DNA of 64,000 nucleotides from Candidatus Tisiphia endosymbiont of Sialis lutaria. GTDB taxonomy: Bacteria; Pseudomonadota; Alphaproteobacteria; Rickettsiales; Rickettsiaceae. Location of the stretch: contig NZ_OZ032153.1 in NCBI RefSeq assembly GCF_964026535.1, forward strand, positions 806,001 through 870,000. Reading direction: 5' to 3'. Numbering within the stretch: position 1 is the stretch's first letter; the number at the start of each line of letters is the position of its first letter. Below are positions 1-59,588 of the stretch, one piece after another. The notes below the pieces were generated by a model. The model made no database searches, had not been told where the DNA came from, and saw only the letters and a list, made by a program, of their open reading frames with translations. Both the position numbers and the translations under genes were made by a program.

Positions 1-554
1 AGCTTCGGTAGAATCGTGTCATGATAATAGGCACAATGCGGGCAAGTTGGGGAAAAATACTCAACTACCACCACATTTGCCTCAATATTACCAAGTATTA
101 TATCATTTTGACTAACATTGAAAGTTGGTTTATAAGATATCTGTTTCGGGCTAACAACCTGCACGTCAGTCTTCCCATCAACAGATTCAACTGTAGAATT
201 CTTTGTTGTTTCTAGAGGCTTCTCAGTATCAGTTGAAATCGTAGAATCTTGTTGTTCTACTTCCTGATCATCTACTATTATGTCTAATTTATCATTAGCA
301 GGGTTATAGTCAATTGATGAGAAGTTGGTGACGTCGTCACTCGTCGCTCGCCTATTACTTATAGGCGTCGCTCCATCGCTCCTGCTACCCAATTTCCCTG
401 AATTGACTATATCATTATTTTCTTCCGATGGTGCTTTCTCCTGACTTACCTCTGCCTTATTATCAGCTAACTTGTTTTTATTATTAGATGTATCACTTTC
501 TTCTGAGCATGATATCAACAATAATGAGACTAGAATGATAATGATAGTATGCAT
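1..554 (-). CDS. DsbA/thioredoxin-like lipoprotein (3' end outside window), with in-frame palindromic insert
   Basis: Read on the minus strand from the ATG at 554. The N-terminus is a lipoprotein signal (hydrophobic run ending LLIS-C at residue 16), so the protein is probably anchored at the membrane facing the periplasm. A long polar, low-complexity linker follows. Near the window edge the frame reads VVVVEYFSPTCPHCAYYH, the start of a thioredoxin fold with a CPHC redox centre as in DsbA. The expected role is disulfide formation in secreted proteins. The linker contains a complete copy of palindromic element A (305-411), which adds about 35 residues in frame. The C-terminal part lies beyond base 1. 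The identification rests on the CPHC motif and lipobox. An oxidase role rather than an isomerase role is inferred. Confidence 0.85.
   Translation of the reverse strand, partial: MHTIIIILVSLLLISCSEESDTSNNKNKLADNKAEVSQEKAPSEENNDIVNSGKLGSRSDGATPISNRRATSDDVTNFSSIDYNPANDKLDIIVDDQEVEQQDSTISTDTEKPLETTKNSTVESVDGKTDVQVVSPKQISYKPTFNVSQNDIILGNIEANVVVVEYFSPTCPHCAYYHDTILPK
305..411 (-). repeat. Palindromic element A, in frame inside the DsbA-like gene
   Basis: A 107-bp copy with ends TATAGTCAATT/AATTGACTATA and the inner hairpin CGCCTATAAGTAATAGGCG. It is read on the minus strand as ...[10 protein letters not shown] then [15 protein letters not shown] without a stop. It sits in the flexible linker between lipoprotein signal and thioredoxin domain, where extra residues are likely tolerated. 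This matches what is known for Rickettsia palindromic elements. Confidence 0.9.
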
Positions 555-3462: not shown

Positions 3463-3569
3463 TATAATCAATTCAGGAGAATTTGGTACTAGGAACGATG
3501 GAGCAACGCCTATAAGTAATAGGCGAGCGACGAGTGACGACGTCACCAACTTCCCATCAATTGATTATA
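3463..3569 (+). repeat. Palindromic element A
   Basis: Full 107-bp copy, TATAATCAATTC...AATTGATTATA. Both ends carry the matching change (G to A in one arm, C to T in the other), so the terminal pairing is kept. Confidence 0.85.
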
Positions 3570-3865: not shown

Positions 3866-5674
3866 ATGTATGAAAAAAGATTAAAAAACTGCTTCGTCTC
3901 TTTAAGCTCTGAGTATATCGTGTCTTGTAAGTATCCTAATACTTTAAAAAGGTCTTTGTATACTTTTAGTATTATAAAAATCCTGCAACAAAATAGTGAT
4001 TTGCTTGATTATCTTAGTTCGAATAGCCAAAAGAATTTGCATTCCATTTTGGAACAATACGGAACACTTTCTATTGAGCTGTTAAAGCAACAAAAATATC
4101 AAACAGAAGAGATAACAAATTTTTCTACTTCTCTTAAGCAATTATTGGATTATTTAGAAAACTCTTCTAATTCACATCGGGCAAAAGATAATCAAGCACT
4201 AAAAACAGTAATGGATTTAGCGGAAAATTTTGTACAACATTGTTGCCTACTGATAACTGAAGATATTAAGAATCAAGATGTTATAAATAATCTACAGGCG
4301 ACTGCAATTATTGTAAATTTAGATATAGGTGCTAGGAACGATGAAGCGATGCCTATATGTAATAGGCGAGTAACTAGTGACAACGTCACCAATTTCTCAT
4401 CAATTAACTATAATTTATTAACAGAACAACAAAATCTACTTTTAGATCAATTATTGCTTATTAAAGAATTATGGCAGATTGATTCTACTATTGATCTAAA
4501 GAAAGACTCTGTCCCATTGCTATTCCATGCCAATATATTATTAATACTGCAAGCAGAGAACTCCGTAGATTATAAATATACTTTTGAAAGAATTGTTAAT
4601 TTCCTGATAAATGATCACAACGTATTAATAGAATTAACTAATGCTAAGTTAATTTGCTTATATAATAGGCTAAAAGATTTATGTGTTAAATCTAATATTA
4701 TAAACCATATTTTGATAAAAATACATGAGGAATCGAAATTTAGAAAAAATTCCAATAAATTGAATAATTCAGGATATGAGCTTTTAGAATTATTTGAAAA
4801 TTATAATACTATGATACATCAGATAGAAAATTCGGAATTTACTATAGTAGAAAGATTTTTACTCCAGCGAAATACCTTTATGCATGAAGTTTTAATTAAT
4901 ATTACAAAGCATATAAATGCTATCAGGATACTTAATATAACCGTAGACCCTGATCTTAATTATATACTATCTTATATTAGAAAAGGGTTAACTCAAAACA
5001 TTCAAAGTGGTCATACTATTTCTTTAATGATTTCTTCTATTGAATCTAAATTTTCTTCAAAACTTGAAGCTAAAATTATTAAACGATATATTTCTTTAGA
5101 TAGTTTTACTAAAAATGCCTTAAAAACTAGGTATCAGCTACTATTTAGCAATATTAGTTCATTGTTAAAAAAAGATCTAAATTATGTAGAGTTTATACAA
5201 CAAATAATAACCTGTAAAATCGTAGCTGACTATAAGATAAATAGCTATGTTACTTCAGTCAAAATGTTGAGGATAATTGAACAAGAAAGGGTAATAGTAA
5301 TAAACCAATTACGCGAAATAAATTTTGTAGAAATTTTTAGTGATAAATATTTAAATAAAACATTTAGTTTAAATTTTAAGAAATATGTCAGGAGGACTAA
5401 TATAACAACTCCTTCAGGTTATGTTACAGTAATCATTAGAATATTGCTAACAACTTTTAGTGTTGAACAGCTTCAGCTCTTATCGCAATTTCTAAAGAAT
5501 GGTAATTTAACGACAATTCAAGAAATTGTTCAGCAGGAGTTGGTTATGCAAGTTAAAAAACGCACCACTATAGGCAAAATAATATATTATATATTTACTA
5601 GGAGGAAAAATGAACTTATCATACTTAATAACATCAAGAAATCTCTAAATGAATATACTAACCGTCATTGCTAG
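3866..5674 (+). CDS. Unknown 602-residue protein with in-frame palindromic insert
   Basis: I recognise no family. The protein is rich in Leu, Ile, Asn and Lys and looks mostly alpha-helical, with no clear signal peptide or membrane segment. Residues of about 149-182 are encoded by a diverged copy of element A (ARNDEAMPICNRR...), flanked by ordinary helical sequence on both sides (NNLQATAIIVN before, LLTEQQNLLLDQLL after). The insert is therefore a later addition to an older gene. The stop codon TAG overlaps the CTAG target duplication of the small transposon-like element that follows. It could be a secreted or structural protein. No function is assigned. Confidence 0.7.
   Translation: MYEKRLKNCFVSLSSEYIVSCKYPNTLKRSLYTFSIIKILQQNSDLLDYLSSNSQKNLHSILEQYGTLSIELLKQQKYQTEEITNFSTSLKQLLDYLENSSNSHRAKDNQALKTVMDLAENFVQHCCLLITEDIKNQDVINNLQATAIIVNLDIGARNDEAMPICNRRVTSDNVTNFSSINYNLLTEQQNLLLDQLLLIKELWQIDSTIDLKKDSVPLLFHANILLILQAENSVDYKYTFERIVNFLINDHNVLIELTNAKLICLYNRLKDLCVKSNIINHILIKIHEESKFRKNSNKLNNSGYELLELFENYNTMIHQIENSEFTIVERFLLQRNTFMHEVLINITKHINAIRILNITVDPDLNYILSYIRKGLTQNIQSGHTISLMISSIESKFSSKLEAKIIKRYISLDSFTKNALKTRYQLLFSNISSLLKKDLNYVEFIQQIITCKIVADYKINSYVTSVKMLRIIEQERVIVINQLREINFVEIFSDKYLNKTFSLNFKKYVRRTNITTPSGYVTVIIRILLTTFSVEQLQLLSQFLKNGNLTTIQEIVQQELVMQVKKRTTIGKIIYYIFTRRKNELIILNNIKKSLNEYTNRHC
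4311..4412 (+). repeat. Diverged palindromic element A, in frame inside the 602-residue protein
   Basis: The right end CAATTAACTATA and the core GCCTATATGTAATAGGCG are clear, and the left end is eroded. It is read in the same frame as the copy in the DsbA-like gene ([13 protein letters not shown] there, AMPICNRRVTSDN here). It has more substitutions than intergenic copies but no stop, which suggests an older insertion kept open by selection on the host protein. Confidence 0.85.
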
Positions 5675-16992: not shown

Positions 16993-18021
16993 ATGACTCT
17001 AGACAAGCCAAAACATGACGAAATCTTTCGCAAATCTATGGAGAATCCCATAGTTGCTAAAGAGTTTTTGGCAACTCATTTGCCTAAAGATGTGCTGGCT
17101 TTAATCGATAGTACATCTTTAAAATTAGAAAAAGATAGTTTTATTGAGCCAGACCTTTCTGAAACTATTTCTGATGTATTATTTTCTGTTAAGTTTAATG
17201 ATCAAGATGGCTATATTTTTTTGCTATTGGAACATCAAAGTACTGTTGATAAAATGATGGCGTTTAGGTTATTTAAATATATGATTAATATTTGTGATCG
17301 ATATTTAACTACTAATCATAAAGCTAAATGCCTTCCAGTAATTTATCCCCTAATAATTTATAATGGCAAGAAGAAATATAACGCATCGCTCAATATATGG
17401 AATTTATTTAGCCATCCAGATTTAGCCAGAGGCTTTTGGACAAATGATTGTCAGCTTATTAACGTACATGATATTCCTGATGAAAAACTCAAGGAAAAAG
17501 TATGGTCTGGGATTTTGTTATTTTTCCTCAAACACATCCACGAACGTCAATTACTGAAAAGATGGCAAGAAATCTCTCATCTCTTGCCTAAATTGAGTAA
17601 AATAACAATAGGCTATGACCATATAAGAAATCTATTACAGTATACTTTGATCTTTATTGAGCAAAATGATAAAATAGAGTTAGAAAAAATATTAAAAAAT
17701 AGTTTAACTAAAGAAAAAGGAGAAGAACTTATGCCTAGTATAGCTCAAGTATGGAAAGAAGAAGGGATTCAAATCGGACTACAGGATGGTATCAAAATCG
17801 GAGTGCAAGATGGTATTAAAATCGGAGTGCAAGATGGTATTAAAATCGGAGTACAGGATGGTATTAGAATCGGAGAAGCTAGGGGAGAAGCTAGAGGCGA
17901 AGCTAAAGGTGAAGCTAAATTAATAAAAATGATGATAAACAATGGCAGCTCTATTGAAGAAGTAGCGAGAATTACTGGACTATCTATTACTAAAATCAAT
18001 GAATTACTGAAAGTACAATAA
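16993..18021 (+). CDS. Rpn-family PD-(D/E)XK nuclease, tandem copy 1
   Basis: 342 residues of the Rpn/COG5464 family (recombination-promoting nuclease, often annotated as putative transposase). The nuclease core carries Asp61 (ETISDVLFSV) and Glu80-x-Gln82 (FLLLEHQS), the family's metal site. The C-terminus has four in-frame 8-residue repeats of the type GVQDGIKI, four GEAx units, and a helical tail GSSIEEVARITGLSITKINE. Rpn proteins in E. coli are DNA endonucleases linked to recombination and to phage defence. It starts 3 nt after proS, so it is probably read from the proS transcript. An internal Shine-Dalgarno and ATG at 17731 could produce the C-terminal part separately. Confidence 0.85.
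   Translation: MTLDKPKHDEIFRKSMENPIVAKEFLATHLPKDVLALIDSTSLKLEKDSFIEPDLSETISDVLFSVKFNDQDGYIFLLLEHQSTVDKMMAFRLFKYMINICDRYLTTNHKAKCLPVIYPLIIYNGKKKYNASLNIWNLFSHPDLARGFWTNDCQLINVHDIPDEKLKEKVWSGILLFFLKHIHERQLLKRWQEISHLLPKLSKITIGYDHIRNLLQYTLIFIEQNDKIELEKILKNSLTKEKGEELMPSIAQVWKEEGIQIGLQDGIKIGVQDGIKIGVQDGIKIGVQDGIRIGEARGEARGEAKGEAKLIKMMINNGSSIEEVARITGLSITKINELLKVQ
17731..18021 (+). CDS. Possible internal short form (intragenic antitoxin) of Rpn copy 1
   Basis: An in-frame ATG preceded by AAAAAGGAGAAGAACTT: a consensus AGGAG 8 nt before the start, stronger than the ribosome sites of most genes in this window. The product would be 96 residues: MPSIAQVWKEEG, the 8-residue repeats, the GEA repeats and the helical tail, without the nuclease core. 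In E. coli, Rpn nucleases are reported to be inhibited by short proteins made from an internal start in the same gene. The parallel here is inferred from the site and frame. Confidence 0.6.
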   Translation: MPSIAQVWKEEGIQIGLQDGIKIGVQDGIKIGVQDGIKIGVQDGIRIGEARGEARGEAKGEAKLIKMMINNGSSIEEVARITGLSITKINELLKVQ

Positions 18022-18061
18022 GTAATGAATTATTAGATTAGCTATATAAGCAAATTTTATT

Positions 18062-18982
18062 ATGACTTCAGACAAGCCAAAACATGACGAAATCTTTCGC
18101 AAATCTATGGAGAATCCCATAGTTGCTAAAGAGTTTTTGGCAACTCATTTGCCTAAAGATGTGCTGGCTTTAATCGATAGTACATCTTTAAAATTAGAAA
18201 AAGATAGTTTTATTGAGCCAGACCTTTCTGAAACTATTTCTGATGTATTATTTTCTGTTAAGTTTAATGATCAGGATGGCTATATTTTTTTGCTATTGGA
18301 ACATCAAAGTACTGTTGATAAAATGATGGCATTTAGGTTATTTAAATATATGATTAATATTTGTGATCGATATTTAACTACTAATCATAAAGCTAAAAGC
18401 CTCCCATTAATTTATCCCCTAATAATTTATAATGGCAAGAAGAAATATAACGCATCGCTCAATATATGGAATTTATTTAGCCATCCAGATTTAGCCAGAG
18501 GCTTTTGGACAAATGATTGTCAGCTTATTAACGTACATGATATTCCTGATGAAAAACTCAAGGAAAAAGTATGGTCTGGGATTTTGTTATTTTTCCTCAA
18601 ACACATCCACGAACGTCAATTACTGAAAAGATGGCAAGAAATCTCTCATCTCTTGCCTAAATTGAGTAAAATAACAATAGGCTATGACCATATAAGAAAT
18701 CTATTACAGTATACTTTGATCTTTATTGAGCAAAATGATAAAATAGAGTTAGAAAAAATATTAAAAAATAGTTTAACTAAAGAAAAAGGAGAAGAACTTA
18801 TGCCTAGTATAGCTCAAGTATGGAAAGAAGAAGGGATTCAAATCGGAGAAGCTAGGGGAGAAGCTAAAGGAGAAGCTAAATTAATAAAAATGATGATAAA
18901 TAATGGTAGCTCTATTGAAGAAGTAGCGAGAATTACTGGACTATCTATTACTAAAATCAATGAATTACTGAAAGTACAGTAA
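18062..18982 (+). CDS. Rpn-family nuclease, tandem copy 2
   Basis: 306 residues, almost identical to copy 1 through the nuclease core (Asp61, Glu80-x-Gln82). None of the 8-residue GVQDGIKI repeats is present: EGIQIG runs straight into three GEAx units. The 40-bp spacer before it is the same as before copies 3 and 4, which shows duplication of a whole gene-plus-spacer unit. It shares the internal AGGAG/ATG site. This is the shortest form, which may be close to the ancestral length or a contraction. Confidence 0.85.
   Translation: MTSDKPKHDEIFRKSMENPIVAKEFLATHLPKDVLALIDSTSLKLEKDSFIEPDLSETISDVLFSVKFNDQDGYIFLLLEHQSTVDKMMAFRLFKYMINICDRYLTTNHKAKSLPLIYPLIIYNGKKKYNASLNIWNLFSHPDLARGFWTNDCQLINVHDIPDEKLKEKVWSGILLFFLKHIHERQLLKRWQEISHLLPKLSKITIGYDHIRNLLQYTLIFIEQNDKIELEKILKNSLTKEKGEELMPSIAQVWKEEGIQIGEARGEAKGEAKLIKMMINNGSSIEEVARITGLSITKINELLKVQ
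18800..18982 (+). CDS. Possible internal short form of Rpn copy 2
   Basis: Same AGGAG-8 nt-ATG site as in copy 1. The product would have 60 residues (MPSIAQVWKEEGIQIGEARG..., ending NELLKVQ). It is the shortest of the predicted internal proteins because the variable repeats are missing. Confidence 0.55.
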   Translation: MPSIAQVWKEEGIQIGEARGEAKGEAKLIKMMINNGSSIEEVARITGLSITKINELLKVQ

Positions 18983-19022
18983 GTAATGAATTATTAGATT
19001 AGCTATATAAGCAAATTTTATT

Positions 19023-19979
19023 ATGACTTCAGACAAGCCAAAACATGACGAAATCTTTCGCAAATCTATGGAGAATCCAATAGTTGCTAAAGAGTTTTTG
19101 GCAACTCATTTGCCTAAAGATGTGCTGGCTTTAATCGATAGTACATCTTTAAAATTAGAAAAAGATAGTTTTATTGAGCCAGACCTTTCTGAAACTATTT
19201 CTGATGTATTATTTTCTGTTAAGTTTAATGATCAGGATGGCTATATTTTTTTGCTATTGGAACATCAAAGTACTGTTGATAAAATGATGGCATTTAGGTT
19301 ATTTAAATATATGATTAACATTTGTGATCGATATTTAACTACTAATCATAAAGCTAAATGCCTTCCAGTAATTTATCCCCTAATAATTTATAATGGCAAG
19401 AAGAAATATAACGCATCGCTCAATATATGGAATTTATTTAGCCATCCAGATTTAGCCAGAGGCTTTTGGACAAATGATTGTCAGCTTATTAACGTACATG
19501 ATATCCCCGATGAGGAGCTAAAGAAAAAAGTATGGTCTGGGATTTTGTTATTTTTCCTCAAACACATCCACGAACGTCAATTACTGAAAAGATGGCAAGA
19601 AATCTCTTATCTCTTGCCTAAATTGAGTAAAATAACAATAGGCCATGACCACATAAGAAATCTATTGAGCTATACTTTGACCTTTATTGAGCAAAATGAT
19701 AAAATAGAGTTAGAAAAAATACTAAAAAATAATTTAACTAAAGAAAAAGGAGAAGAACTTATGCCTAGTATAGCTCAAGTATGGAAAGAAGAAGGGATTC
19801 AAATCGGAGTACAGGATGGTATTAGAATCGGAGAAGCTAGGGGAGAAGCTAGGGGAGAAGCTAGAGGAGAAGCTAAATTAATAAAAATGATGATAAATAA
19901 TGGTAGCTCTATTGAAGAAGTAGCGAGAATTACTGGACTATCTATTACTAAAATCAATGAATTACTGAAAGTACAGTAA
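19023..19979 (+). CDS. Rpn-family nuclease, tandem copy 3
   Basis: 318 residues with one GVQDGIRI unit and four GEAx units. The nuclease motif residues are intact. It differs from copies 1 and 2 in a short block (DEELKKKVW for DEKLKEKVW, GHDHIRNLLSYTLTF for GYDHIRNLLQYTLIF) that it shares with copy 4. This indicates two sublineages or gene conversion inside the array. Confidence 0.85.
   Translation: MTSDKPKHDEIFRKSMENPIVAKEFLATHLPKDVLALIDSTSLKLEKDSFIEPDLSETISDVLFSVKFNDQDGYIFLLLEHQSTVDKMMAFRLFKYMINICDRYLTTNHKAKCLPVIYPLIIYNGKKKYNASLNIWNLFSHPDLARGFWTNDCQLINVHDIPDEELKKKVWSGILLFFLKHIHERQLLKRWQEISYLLPKLSKITIGHDHIRNLLSYTLTFIEQNDKIELEKILKNNLTKEKGEELMPSIAQVWKEEGIQIGVQDGIRIGEARGEARGEARGEAKLIKMMINNGSSIEEVARITGLSITKINELLKVQ
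19761..19979 (+). CDS. Possible internal short form of Rpn copy 3
   Basis: Same AGGAG-8 nt-ATG site. The product would have 72 residues, with one 8-residue repeat, four GEAx units and the helical tail. Confidence 0.55.
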   Translation: MPSIAQVWKEEGIQIGVQDGIRIGEARGEARGEARGEAKLIKMMINNGSSIEEVARITGLSITKINELLKVQ

Positions 19980-20019
19980 GTAATGAATTATTAGATTAGC
20001 TATATAAGCAAATTTTATT

Positions 20020-20974
20020 ATGACTCTAGACAAGCCAAAACATGACGAAATCTTTCGCAAATCTATGGAGAATCCCATAGTTGCTAAAGAGTTTTTGGCA
20101 ACTCATTTGCCTAAAGATGTGTTGGCTTTAATCGATAGTACATCTTTAAAATTAGAAAAAGATAGTTTTATTGAGCCAGACCTTTCTGAAACTATTTCTG
20201 ATGTATTATTTTCTGTTAAGTTTAATGATCAGGATGGCTATATTTTTTTGCTATTGGAACATCAAAGTACTGTTGATAAAATGATGGCATTTAGGTTATT
20301 TAAATATATGATTAATATTTGTGATCGATATTTAACTACTAATCCTAAAGCTAAAAGCCTTCCAGTAATTTATCCCCTAATAATTTATAATGGCAAGAAG
20401 AAATATAACGCATCGCTCAATATATGGAATTTATTTAGCCATCCAGATTTAGCCAGAGGCTTTTGGACAAATGATTGTCAGCTTATTAACGTACATGATA
20501 TCCCCGATGAGGAGCTAAAGAAAAAAGTATGGTCTGGGATTTTGTTATTTTTCTTCAAACACATCCACGAACGTCAATTACTGAAAAGATGGCAGGAAAT
20601 TTCTCATCTCTTGCCTAAATTGAGTAAAATAACAATAGGCCATGACCATATAAGAAATCTATTGAGCTATACTTTGACCTTTATTGAGCAAAATGATAAA
20701 ATAGAGTTAGAAAAAATATTAAAAAATAGTTTAACTAAAGAAAAAGGAGAAGAACTTATGCCTAGTATAGCTCAAGTATGGAAAGAAGAAGGGATTCAAA
20801 TCGGAGTGCAAGATGGTATTAAAATCGGAGTACAGGATGGTATTAGAATCGGAGAAGCTAGAGGCGAAGCTAAATAATAAAAATGATGATAAACAATGGT
20901 AGCTCAATTGAAGAAGTAGCGAAAATTACTGGACTATCTATTACTAAAATCAATGAACTATTGAAAATGCAGTA
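20020..20974 (+). pseudogene. Rpn-family nuclease, tandem copy 4, frameshifted near the C-terminus
   Basis: The nuclease core is intact (Asp61, Glu80-x-Gln82) with two 8-residue repeats. One T is missing in GCTAAATAATAAAA compared with GCTAAATTAATAAAA in the other copies, so the main frame ends at 20877 after GEARGEAK (285 residues). The tail (MMINNGSSIEEVAKITGL...KMQ) is still present downstream in another frame to 20974. Its internal ATG at 20758 would give only a 39-residue product without the helical tail. It may still make an active nuclease, now without a complete partner. Confidence 0.8.
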
Positions 20975-22047: not shown

Positions 22048-22154
22048 TATAGTCAATTCAGGGGAATTTGGGGCTAGGAACGATGGAGCGATGCCTATAA
22101 GTAATAGGCGAGCATTGAGCGACGACGTCACCAACTTCCTATCAATTGACTATA
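22048..22154 (+). repeat. Palindromic element A
   Basis: Full 107-bp copy between the CPBP gene and the AsmA-like gene. Confidence 0.9.
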
Positions 22155-24907: not shown

Positions 24908-25014
24908 TATAGTCAATTCAGGATAAGTTGATGCTAGGAGCGATGGAGCGACGCCTATAAGTAATAGGCGAGCGACGAGTGACGACGTCACCAACTTCTC
25001 ATCAATTGACTATA
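24908..25014 (+). repeat. Palindromic element A
   Basis: Full 107-bp copy in the gap between the AsmA-like gene and the carboxypeptidase gene. Its left arm reads AGGATAAGTTGATGC, so it is slightly diverged. Confidence 0.9.
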
Positions 25015-35720: not shown

Positions 35721-35827
35721 TATAGTCAATTCAGGAGAATTTGGGGCTAGGAGCGATGGAGCGACGCCTATAAGTAATAGGCGAGAGACGAGTGACGACG
35801 TCCCCAACTTCTCATCAATTGACTATA
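35721..35827 (+). repeat. Palindromic element A overlapping the end of the rluC-like gene
   Basis: Full 107-bp copy. On the minus strand its first bases (TATAGTCAATTGA) supply the last codons and TGA stop of the convergent pseudouridine synthase gene. Confidence 0.9.
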
Positions 35828-48397: not shown

Positions 48398-49315
48398 ATG
48401 TCAAATATTAGTCCTAGGGTTGATATTGCCTTTAAAAAAATCTTCGGAGTTGAAGAGAATAAGGATTTGCTTATTTCGCTGATCAATTCGATTGTATCTA
48501 GAGAAGACCAAGTAACAGAAGTACAACTTCTCAATCCATATAATCCAAAAAATTTCAAGAGCAATAAACTGTCAATTTTAGATATTAAAGCTCAAGGAAA
48601 AGATGGCAAAAGATTTAATATCGAAATGCAAATTACTGATGCGGATGATTATGACAAAAGAGCTCTATATTATTGGGCAAAGTTATATACTGAGCAATTA
48701 AAGAATGCAGAAGATTATGCTACTTTATCGAAAGCCATTGGTATTCATATATTAAATTTTACCTCTATTTTACATGAAAATAAATATCATAATGTGTTTC
48801 ATATAGTAGAAAAAGATAGTGGTTTGTTATATTTTAAAGATTTAGAATTGCATACTATTGAGCTAAATAAGTTTACTAATAATCCGAAGGAGCAGCTGAC
48901 GGACATAGTAAAGAAGGTAAAAACCTCTCTTGATAGATGGAGTACTTTTTTAACTAGACATGATTTGCTGAACAAAGATAATTTACCTAAAGAGTTAAAT
49001 GATGCTAGCCTAAAAAAAGCCCTGACAGTTCTGGATGTGATGAATTTCACTAAAGAAGAACGTGATTCATATGAAGAACACCTGAAATGGCTACGTATTG
49101 AAGCTAACACTCTCAAGAAAGCACGGAGGGAAGGCAAAGAAGAAGGTAGAGTAGAAGGTAGAGTAGAAGGTATCCAAATTGGTGAAGCTAAGGGAGAAGC
49201 TAAATTAATAAAAATGATGATAGAAAATGGCAGTTCTATTGAGGAAATAGCGAAAATGACGGGTCTAGCTATTACCAGAATTAATGAATTATTGGAAAAT
49301 AAAAATGCCTCTTAA
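48398..49315 (+). CDS. PD-(D/E)XK nuclease transposase-family protein (Rpn-related, second type)
   Basis: 305 residues. The N-terminal part (SPRVDIAFKKIFGVEENKDL) is that of the PD-(D/E)XK nuclease-transposase family; the metal site is Asp62 (SILDIKAQG) and Glu76-x-Gln78 (FNIEMQITD). The core is unlike that of the tandem array at 17-21 kb. Yet its last 55 residues (RVEGIQIGEAKGEAKLIKMM, ENGSSIEEIAKMTGLA) are nearly the same module as in the array. No internal ATG with a strong ribosome site was seen in this gene. Confidence 0.85.
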   Translation: MSNISPRVDIAFKKIFGVEENKDLLISLINSIVSREDQVTEVQLLNPYNPKNFKSNKLSILDIKAQGKDGKRFNIEMQITDADDYDKRALYYWAKLYTEQLKNAEDYATLSKAIGIHILNFTSILHENKYHNVFHIVEKDSGLLYFKDLELHTIELNKFTNNPKEQLTDIVKKVKTSLDRWSTFLTRHDLLNKDNLPKELNDASLKKALTVLDVMNFTKEERDSYEEHLKWLRIEANTLKKARREGKEEGRVEGRVEGIQIGEAKGEAKLIKMMIENGSSIEEIAKMTGLAITRINELLENKNAS

Positions 49316-59479: not shown

Positions 59480-59588
59480 TTATAAGTCAATTCAGGGGAA
59501 TTGGGTAGCAGGAACGATGGAGCGACGCCTATAAGTAATAGGCGAGCGACGAGTGACGACGTCACCAACTTCCCATCAATTGACTATA
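59480..59588 (+). repeat. Palindromic element A inside the IS relic
   Basis: TATAAGTCAATTC...AATTGACTATA. The same position is empty in the intact IS (AGATAGTAGGTTATGG at 10771-10786), so this insertion is younger than the IS copy. Confidence 0.88.

What the first reader, a model, noticed from the sequence alone, without database searches (positions are those of the whole stretch)
16993..20974. Tandem Rpn nuclease array with a conserved intragenic ribosome site: possible nested toxin/antitoxin genes
Seen: four nearly identical nuclease genes, each with the same in-frame ATG (17731, 18800, 19761, 20758) preceded by AGGAG with 8-nt spacing. The gene-start ribosome sites are far weaker: copy 1 has only GTT between the proS stop and its ATG. 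Known: in E. coli, Rpn nucleases are restrained by short proteins translated from inside the same gene and act in phage defence. Inference: this endosymbiont carries an amplified version in which the nuclease is weakly translated and the internal inhibitor strongly translated. Each copy has a different inhibitor length, which could give partner specificity.
Basis: partly seen in the sequence, partly recalled or inferred. Interest (0 to 1): 0.85.

Follow-up and report, generated by a model that had tools for sequence, protein, structure and literature searches.

The report
Nuclease genes hiding their own antidote
An insect symbiont (Torix-group Rickettsia) carries a row of four near-identical DNA-cutting toxin genes, each of which appears to contain a second, complete small gene for its own inhibitor, with its own promoter and ribosome site; this is a known E. 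coli phage-defence design, found here in many copies with swappable inhibitor ends.

Summary
Four tandem Rpn (PF04754) nuclease genes at 16993-20974, 97-99% identical, each carry AGGAG-8nt-ATG at 17731, 18800, 19761 and 20758. One correction: copy 4 has a one-base deletion near 20873 and loses its tail; by repeat number copies 3 and 4 are equal (7 four-residue repeats; copies 1 and 2 have 13 and 4).

It is a RpnL/RpnS nested toxin-antitoxin gene (Zhong et al. 2023). The internal Met aligns exactly with the proven internal start of E. coli RpnA (M244), and all RpnA catalytic residues are kept. The four most codon-constrained residues of 293 are its -35 and three at the internal start. A second subfamily has its own embedded promoter elsewhere.

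Tails are exchanged between diverged Rpn bodies, and with PF12784 nucleases that lack a conserved internal start.

Expression, toxicity and inhibition in Rickettsia are inferred, not shown. Verdict: new member of a known kind.

The parts
16993..18021 (+). rpnL copy 1 (342 aa), PD-(D/E)XK Rpn nuclease; starts 3 nt after the proS stop
   Evidence: PF04754 E 1.3e-56; RpnA model E 1.6e-43; catalytic residues kept
18062..18982 (+). rpnL copy 2 (306 aa)
   Evidence: PF04754 E 8.8e-57; AlphaFold2 model, mean pLDDT 85.5
19023..19979 (+). rpnL copy 3 (318 aa)
   Evidence: PF04754 E 8.6e-57
20020..20877 (+). rpnL copy 4, truncated (285 aa) by a one-base deletion near 20873; nuclease domain intact, last two tail helices lost
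20878..20974 (+). out-of-frame remainder of the copy 4 tail
   Evidence: sequence comparison with copies 1-3
17731..18021 (+). nested rpnS 1 (96 aa; 13 four-residue repeats)
   Evidence: aligns to E. coli RpnA M244 start; repeats
18800..18982 (+). nested rpnS 2 (60 aa; 4 repeats)
19761..19979 (+). nested rpnS 3 (72 aa; 7 repeats)
20758..20877 (+). nested rpnS 4, truncated (39 aa; 7 repeats, no tail helices); probably not a working inhibitor by itself
17718..17722 (+). AGGAG ribosome site of rpnS 1 (also 18787-18791, 19748-19752, 20745-20749)
   Evidence: dG -8.9 kcal/mol; synonymous conservation
17647..17675 (+). embedded sigma70-type promoter of rpnS 1: TTGATC-17-TAAAAT with TG extended -10
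18716..18744 (+). embedded promoter of rpnS 2 (TTGATC-17-TAAAAT)
19677..19705 (+). embedded promoter of rpnS 3 (TTGACC-17-TAAAAT)
20674..20702 (+). embedded promoter of rpnS 4 (TTGACC-17-TAAAAT)
17764..17919 (+). four-residue (12-nt) repeat stretch of copy 1, inside the predicted long helix; copies 2-4 have shorter equivalents
   Evidence: helix 240-280 in copy 2 model
48398..49315 (+). PF12784 nuclease whose tail resembles the Rpn tails at DNA level but which has no nested start

Best explanation
Each copy is a gene within a gene. The full frame makes RpnL, a PD-(D/E)XK DNA endonuclease that is toxic when free. Inside it lies a complete small gene: a sigma70-type promoter about 55 nt before the internal ATG, an AGGAG ribosome site, and a reading frame for RpnS, the C-terminal part (start of a long helix with four-residue repeats, then two short helices). 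RpnS is made in excess from its own promoter and ribosome site, while RpnL is weakly translated. RpnS pairs with the identical tail of RpnL through the long helix and keeps the nuclease off; loss of the pairing, for example during invasion by phage or mobile DNA, frees it. Because toxin tail and antitoxin are the same DNA, a change in repeat number or a tail swap alters both partners at once, so each copy can become a separately paired unit. Shown by sequence: anatomy, homology, conserved catalytic residues, nucleotide-level conservation of promoter and start, repeat variation, tail exchange. Inferred from E. coli: translation, toxicity, inhibition, defence.
For: Homology to E. coli RpnA, with M247 of copy 2 aligned to the proven RpnA start M244 (PMC10327210). 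RpnA catalytic D11, D63, E82, Q84, R94 (PMC5350276) correspond to D9, D61, E80, Q82, R92; four are invariant and E80 nearly so in 40 diverse homologues. dN/dS about 0.15 among 27 close copies. Internal SD much stronger than starts or other internal ATGs and beyond a synonymous null in subfamily A. Top four codon-constrained residues of 293 are 219 (-35), 243 (SD), 246 and 249 (beside the ATG); window 219-249 ranks first of 269. Promoter scan against a synonymous null: the only strong peak along the gene is there, z about 8.5; subfamily B has its own single peak, z about 9. The strict promoter pattern occurs 14 times in the genome, 12 in rpn copies, against 2 for the reversed pattern. Lengths vary only in 4-residue steps in 23 of 23 copies, as in the published system. 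Predicted nuclease-like core, helix 240-280, then two helices.
Against: No expression, toxicity or inhibition data exist for these proteins. Subfamily B keeps the internal ATG but its SD is not stronger than expected. The match of the RpnS model to the RpnA-S crystal structure 7TH0 is weak (E 1.2, Z 5.0) and tied with other small helical domains. Copy 4 is broken, as is the single orthologous copy in one relative, so some copies are decaying. Null tests treat relatives as independent; ranking against other columns of the same alignment only partly controls this.
Confidence: 0.86

Rival explanations
1. The internal AGGAG/ATG is a by-product of purine-rich codons (Lys, Gly, Glu) in a conserved protein and does nothing.
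For: Given only the amino acids, a synonymous null already predicts fairly strong pairing (pooled null mean about -5.6); subfamily B shows no excess.
Against: In subfamily A the excess is clear. The residue after the SD glycine varies (E, G, D, A, V) while GGAG is kept. E. coli makes the same core from different codons at the same place. The embedded promoter independently points to the same start.
Confidence: 0.07
2. The short protein is real but is mainly a DNA-binding autorepressor or structural partner, not an antitoxin.
For: The tail resembles helix-turn-helix domains (weak Pfam hits; TrpR- and resolvase-like rows). Zhong et al. also note HTH relatedness.
Against: E. coli RpnA-S and RpnB-S block DNA damage by their RpnL partners, and RpnA-S binds RpnA-L (PMC10327210). 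A dual role is not excluded.
Confidence: 0.1
3. The array is amplified transposase-like debris without present function.
For: PF04754 is named 'Putative transposase'; copy 4, two split or broken copies elsewhere (L023, L024/L026) and the single copy of a relative are damaged.
Against: Most copies are open with dN/dS about 0.15 and kept catalytic residues. Synonymous constraint sits on promoter and start. Published work found no evidence for autonomous transposition (PMC10327210).
Confidence: 0.08

Closest known systems
E. coli RpnA-L/RpnA-S and paralogues (Zhong et al. 2023, PMC10327210; structure 7TH0)
   Same: Same family (PF04754), same catalytic residues, internal start at the aligned Met, Shine-Dalgarno of the same core, four-residue repeats beginning 8-20 residues after the start (here residue 12), three-helix tail, variable repeat number, tandem arrays by duplication; E. 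coli has an internal transcript start in every rpn gene.
   Different: Far more copies per Mb (20 PF04754 matches in 1.46 Mb); the promoter lies about 55 nt from the ATG with a different sequence; tails are shared across diverged bodies and with PF12784 nucleases; the organism is an obligate intracellular alphaproteobacterium with no tested phage.
Bacillus thuringiensis sv. yunnanensis multi-copy rpn (26 copies, cited in PMC10327210)
   Same: High copy number in one genome.
   Different: A different, unrelated bacterium; its copies were not examined here.
PDDEXK_2 (PF12784) nucleases of Rickettsiaceae
   Same: Nuclease family with repeat-plus-helix tails up to 91% identical at DNA level to Rpn tails.
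   Different: No alignable body DNA in this genome and no conserved internal ATG or SD before the tail in 39 ORFs.

Membership tests
Rpn (PF04754 / TIGR01784) nuclease | Sequence match above the curated cut-off | tested here: met
   PF04754 190-192 bits vs cut-off 21; TIGR01784 69-101 bits vs cut-off 52.1
Rpn (PF04754 / TIGR01784) nuclease | PD-(D/E)XK catalytic residues (RpnA D11, D63, E82, Q84, R94) | tested here: met
   D9, D61, E80, Q82, R92 in copy 2; D9, D61, Q82, R92 invariant and E80 at least 90% in 40 homologues
Rpn (PF04754 / TIGR01784) nuclease | PD-(D/E)XK fold | tested here: inconclusive
   Confident model; Foldseek finds nothing significant; best second-look row is EndoMS, Z 6.9, 97 residues aligned, below the level to trust alone
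RpnL/RpnS nested toxin-antitoxin | Internal in-frame start with ribosome site before the C-terminal tail | tested here: met
   Aligned to RpnA M244; SD conserved beyond a synonymous null in subfamily A
RpnL/RpnS nested toxin-antitoxin | Separate internal transcription start | tested here: inconclusive
   Conserved embedded promoter-like site in subfamilies A and B; no RNA data
RpnL/RpnS nested toxin-antitoxin | Four-residue repeats starting 8-20 residues after the internal start, varying in number | tested here: met
   Repeats start at residue 12; 13, 4, 7, 7 repeats; 23 of 23 copies differ by multiples of four residues
RpnL/RpnS nested toxin-antitoxin | RpnS three-helix structure like 7TH0 | tested here: inconclusive
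   Long helix plus two short helices in the RpnL model; RpnS model pLDDT 66 hits 7TH0 weakly
RpnL/RpnS nested toxin-antitoxin | RpnS binds and inhibits a toxic RpnL | not testable with these tools
   Needs protein or growth assays
RpnL/RpnS nested toxin-antitoxin | Anti-phage activity | not testable with these tools
   Needs phage challenge in a laboratory strain
Transposase / insertion sequence | Autonomous transposition, terminal repeats, target duplications | not tested
   Only the published conclusion for rpn genes (PMC10327210) is available; copies in G000 have differing flanks

The most novel reading that the evidence does not exclude
Interchangeable inhibitor tails form one network across two nuclease families: PF12784 nucleases, which carry Rpn-like tails but no nested start, are held in check in trans by RpnS proteins made inside the PF04754 genes, and recombination in the 12-nt repeats rewires who inhibits whom.
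Probability: 0.2. Interest if true: 0.75.

Novelty: new member of a known kind. Interest (0 to 1): 0.46.

Why it matters
It carries a recently described defence design (toxin and antidote in one stretch of DNA) into obligate intracellular symbionts, and gives sequence evidence that the inner gene is complete, with a promoter kept by selection on silent codon positions and placed differently in two subfamilies. The tail exchange suggests how matched toxin and antidote specificities could arise in one recombination step, and the many natural length variants are a ready test set for the open question of how Rpn pairs recognise each other.

Tried and rejected
A search for the 16S end with the usual GGATCACC failed; the tail reads GGATTACCTCCTTT. 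Pooled over all 81 relatives the synonymous null did not separate (mean p 0.41); splitting into two subfamilies showed A passes and B does not. The general promoter scan gave no excess over shuffles (27 vs 21.3, sd 4.9), so promoter claims rest only on the codon-conservation tests. A first promoter test for subfamily B at the subfamily A position was negative; scanning the whole gene found its own site. A third-base test aimed at residue 226 read the wrong column (all Asp) and is not used. Sequence search of PDB with RpnS found only designed repeats and HTH proteins. Foldseek with the RpnL model gave no significant match. An ungapped tail comparison between families gave low identities because the ends differ in length; local alignment corrected this. 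In the RiCNE draft the longer 'copy 1' is an assembly join across unknown bases, so it was not used as evidence of longer repeats.

Full report
What is there. Four PF04754 (Rpn, 'YhgA-like') genes lie head to tail between proS and a CAAX-type protease gene: 16993-18021, 18062-18982, 19023-19979 and 20020-20877. Their nuclease parts are 97-99% identical. Relatives fetched by name are mostly Torix-group Rickettsia, endosymbionts of midges and other arthropods; the window lies at 806001-870000 of a 1.46-Mb genome with 20 PF04754 and 12 PF12784 matches. The in-frame ATGs at 17731, 18800, 19761 and 20758, each with AGGAG and an 8-nt spacer, are as described. Copy 4 has a one-base deletion near 20873, so it keeps the nuclease domain but loses the last two helices.

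More than chance. With this genome's anti-Shine-Dalgarno tail, pairing at the internal sites is -8.9 kcal/mol; no other gene start in the window is stronger than -7.3, and 2 of 236 in-frame internal ATGs of other genes reach -8.9. The Rpn gene starts have no pairing, but many other genes in the window are also weak, so a weak start is not special.

The site is homologous to a proven one. Aligned to 40 diverse homologues, E. coli RpnA places its experimentally proven internal start M244 exactly on M247 of copy 2. E. coli spells its site AAG GAG, here it is AAA GGA GAA: the same core from different codons. Of 82 aligned family members 80 have ATG there and one more has it one residue away. The catalytic residues of RpnA (D11, D63, E82, Q84, R94; PMC5350276) correspond to D9, D61, E80, Q82, R92. 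Close copies show dN/dS about 0.15.

Conservation beyond the protein. In subfamily A (27 representatives under 93% nucleotide identity) the SD exceeds a synonymous-codon null, and the third base of the SD glycine is the most conserved of 48 four-fold columns. An unbiased scan of codon choice over 293 residues ranks residue 219 first (z 24), then 243, 246 and 249; window 219-249 ranks first of 269. Residue 219 is a leucine spelled TTG in 25 of 27 although TTG is 16% of leucines: it is the -35 of a promoter TTGACN-17-TAWAAT with the TG of an extended -10. Where lysine is replaced by isoleucine, TAAAAT becomes TATAAT and the -10 survives. Sliding the test along the gene, this is the only strong peak (z about 8.5; next independent about 2.9). 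Subfamily B has a single peak of its own, TTTACW-17-TAYACT, at residues 209-218. In this genome the strict pattern occurs 14 times, 12 of them in rpn copies; the reversed pattern occurs twice. In E. coli rpnA, B, D and E a promoter-like ATGACA-17-(TTTAAT or TTAAAT) sits 87 nt before the internal ATG, and Zhong et al. report an internal transcript start in every rpn gene. Relatives are not independent, so the stated P values are optimistic; the ranking against other columns of the same alignment is the safer statement.

Subfamily B is the limit of the claim: it keeps the Met and has an embedded promoter-like site, but its SD is no stronger than the amino acids predict.

Structure. The RpnL model (mean pLDDT 85.5) has a nuclease-like alpha/beta part, then one long helix 240-280 that holds the internal Met and the repeats, then two short helices, the layout published for RpnA-S. 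The RpnS model alone is poor (pLDDT 66), and its match to 7TH0 is weak.

Repeats and tails. Repeats begin at RpnS residue 12. Copies 1-4 have 13, 4, 7 and 7 four-residue units. Among 23 copies with the same end module the distance from Met to the module is always 3 modulo 4. Tails are exchanged: an A body and a B body with 36% amino-acid identity share 111 of 111 tail nucleotides, and near-identical bodies carry unrelated tails. PF12784 nucleases, whose bodies share no alignable DNA with Rpn in this genome, carry tails up to 91% identical over 113 nt, yet have no conserved internal start in 39 ORFs.

History of the array. Five closely related genomes share the proS-rpn junction and the outgroups have no rpn there. 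Two relatives have a single copy, one of them frameshifted in the repeat; a draft of the same species is collapsed across a gap. So one copy was probably inserted in the clade's ancestor and the array of four is recent (inference).

Mechanism and verdict. The best reading is a nested toxin-antitoxin gene in which RpnS has its own promoter and ribosome site, pairs with the identical tail of RpnL through the repeat helix and keeps the nuclease off. Anatomy, homology and conservation are shown; translation, toxicity, inhibition and defence are inferred from E. coli. This is a new member of a known kind. The embedded promoter, its different position in a second subfamily, and the sharing of tails with nucleases that lack a nested start are the parts a specialist would want to follow.

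Noticed in passing
48398-49315, and L001-L008, L148-L151, L176-L202: PF12784 nucleases carry Rpn-like repeat-and-helix tails (up to 91% DNA identity over 113 nt) but have no conserved nested start before the tail.
   Followed up: partly
4316-4411 inside ORF 3866-5674; also about 306-383, 3485-3568, 22070-22153, 24932-25013, 35743-35826, 59510-59587: A repeat of about 96 bases, resembling a Rickettsia palindromic element, is inserted in frame in one protein and recurs at least seven more times in the window at 83-88% identity; a similar element splits the rpn copy at L024/L026.
   Followed up: partly
L009, L014, L018 and other subfamily B rpn genes: Subfamily B keeps the internal Met and has its own embedded promoter-like site, but its ribosome site is weaker than the amino acids alone would predict.
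   Followed up: partly
L074 (2501-3358 and following bases): In the Culicoides impunctatus symbiont the single rpn copy at the same proS locus is frameshifted within the repeats, at a different point from copy 4 here: tail loss recurs at this locus.
   Followed up: partly
17564-17588, 18633-18657, 19594-19618, minus strand: Terminator-like hairpin on the minus strand within copies 1-3 (10 pairs, then T-rich); not tested for conservation.
   Followed up: no
L088 and L089: Two relatives carry another three-copy rpn array elsewhere in the genome, with spacers like those between copies 2-4 here.
   Followed up: no
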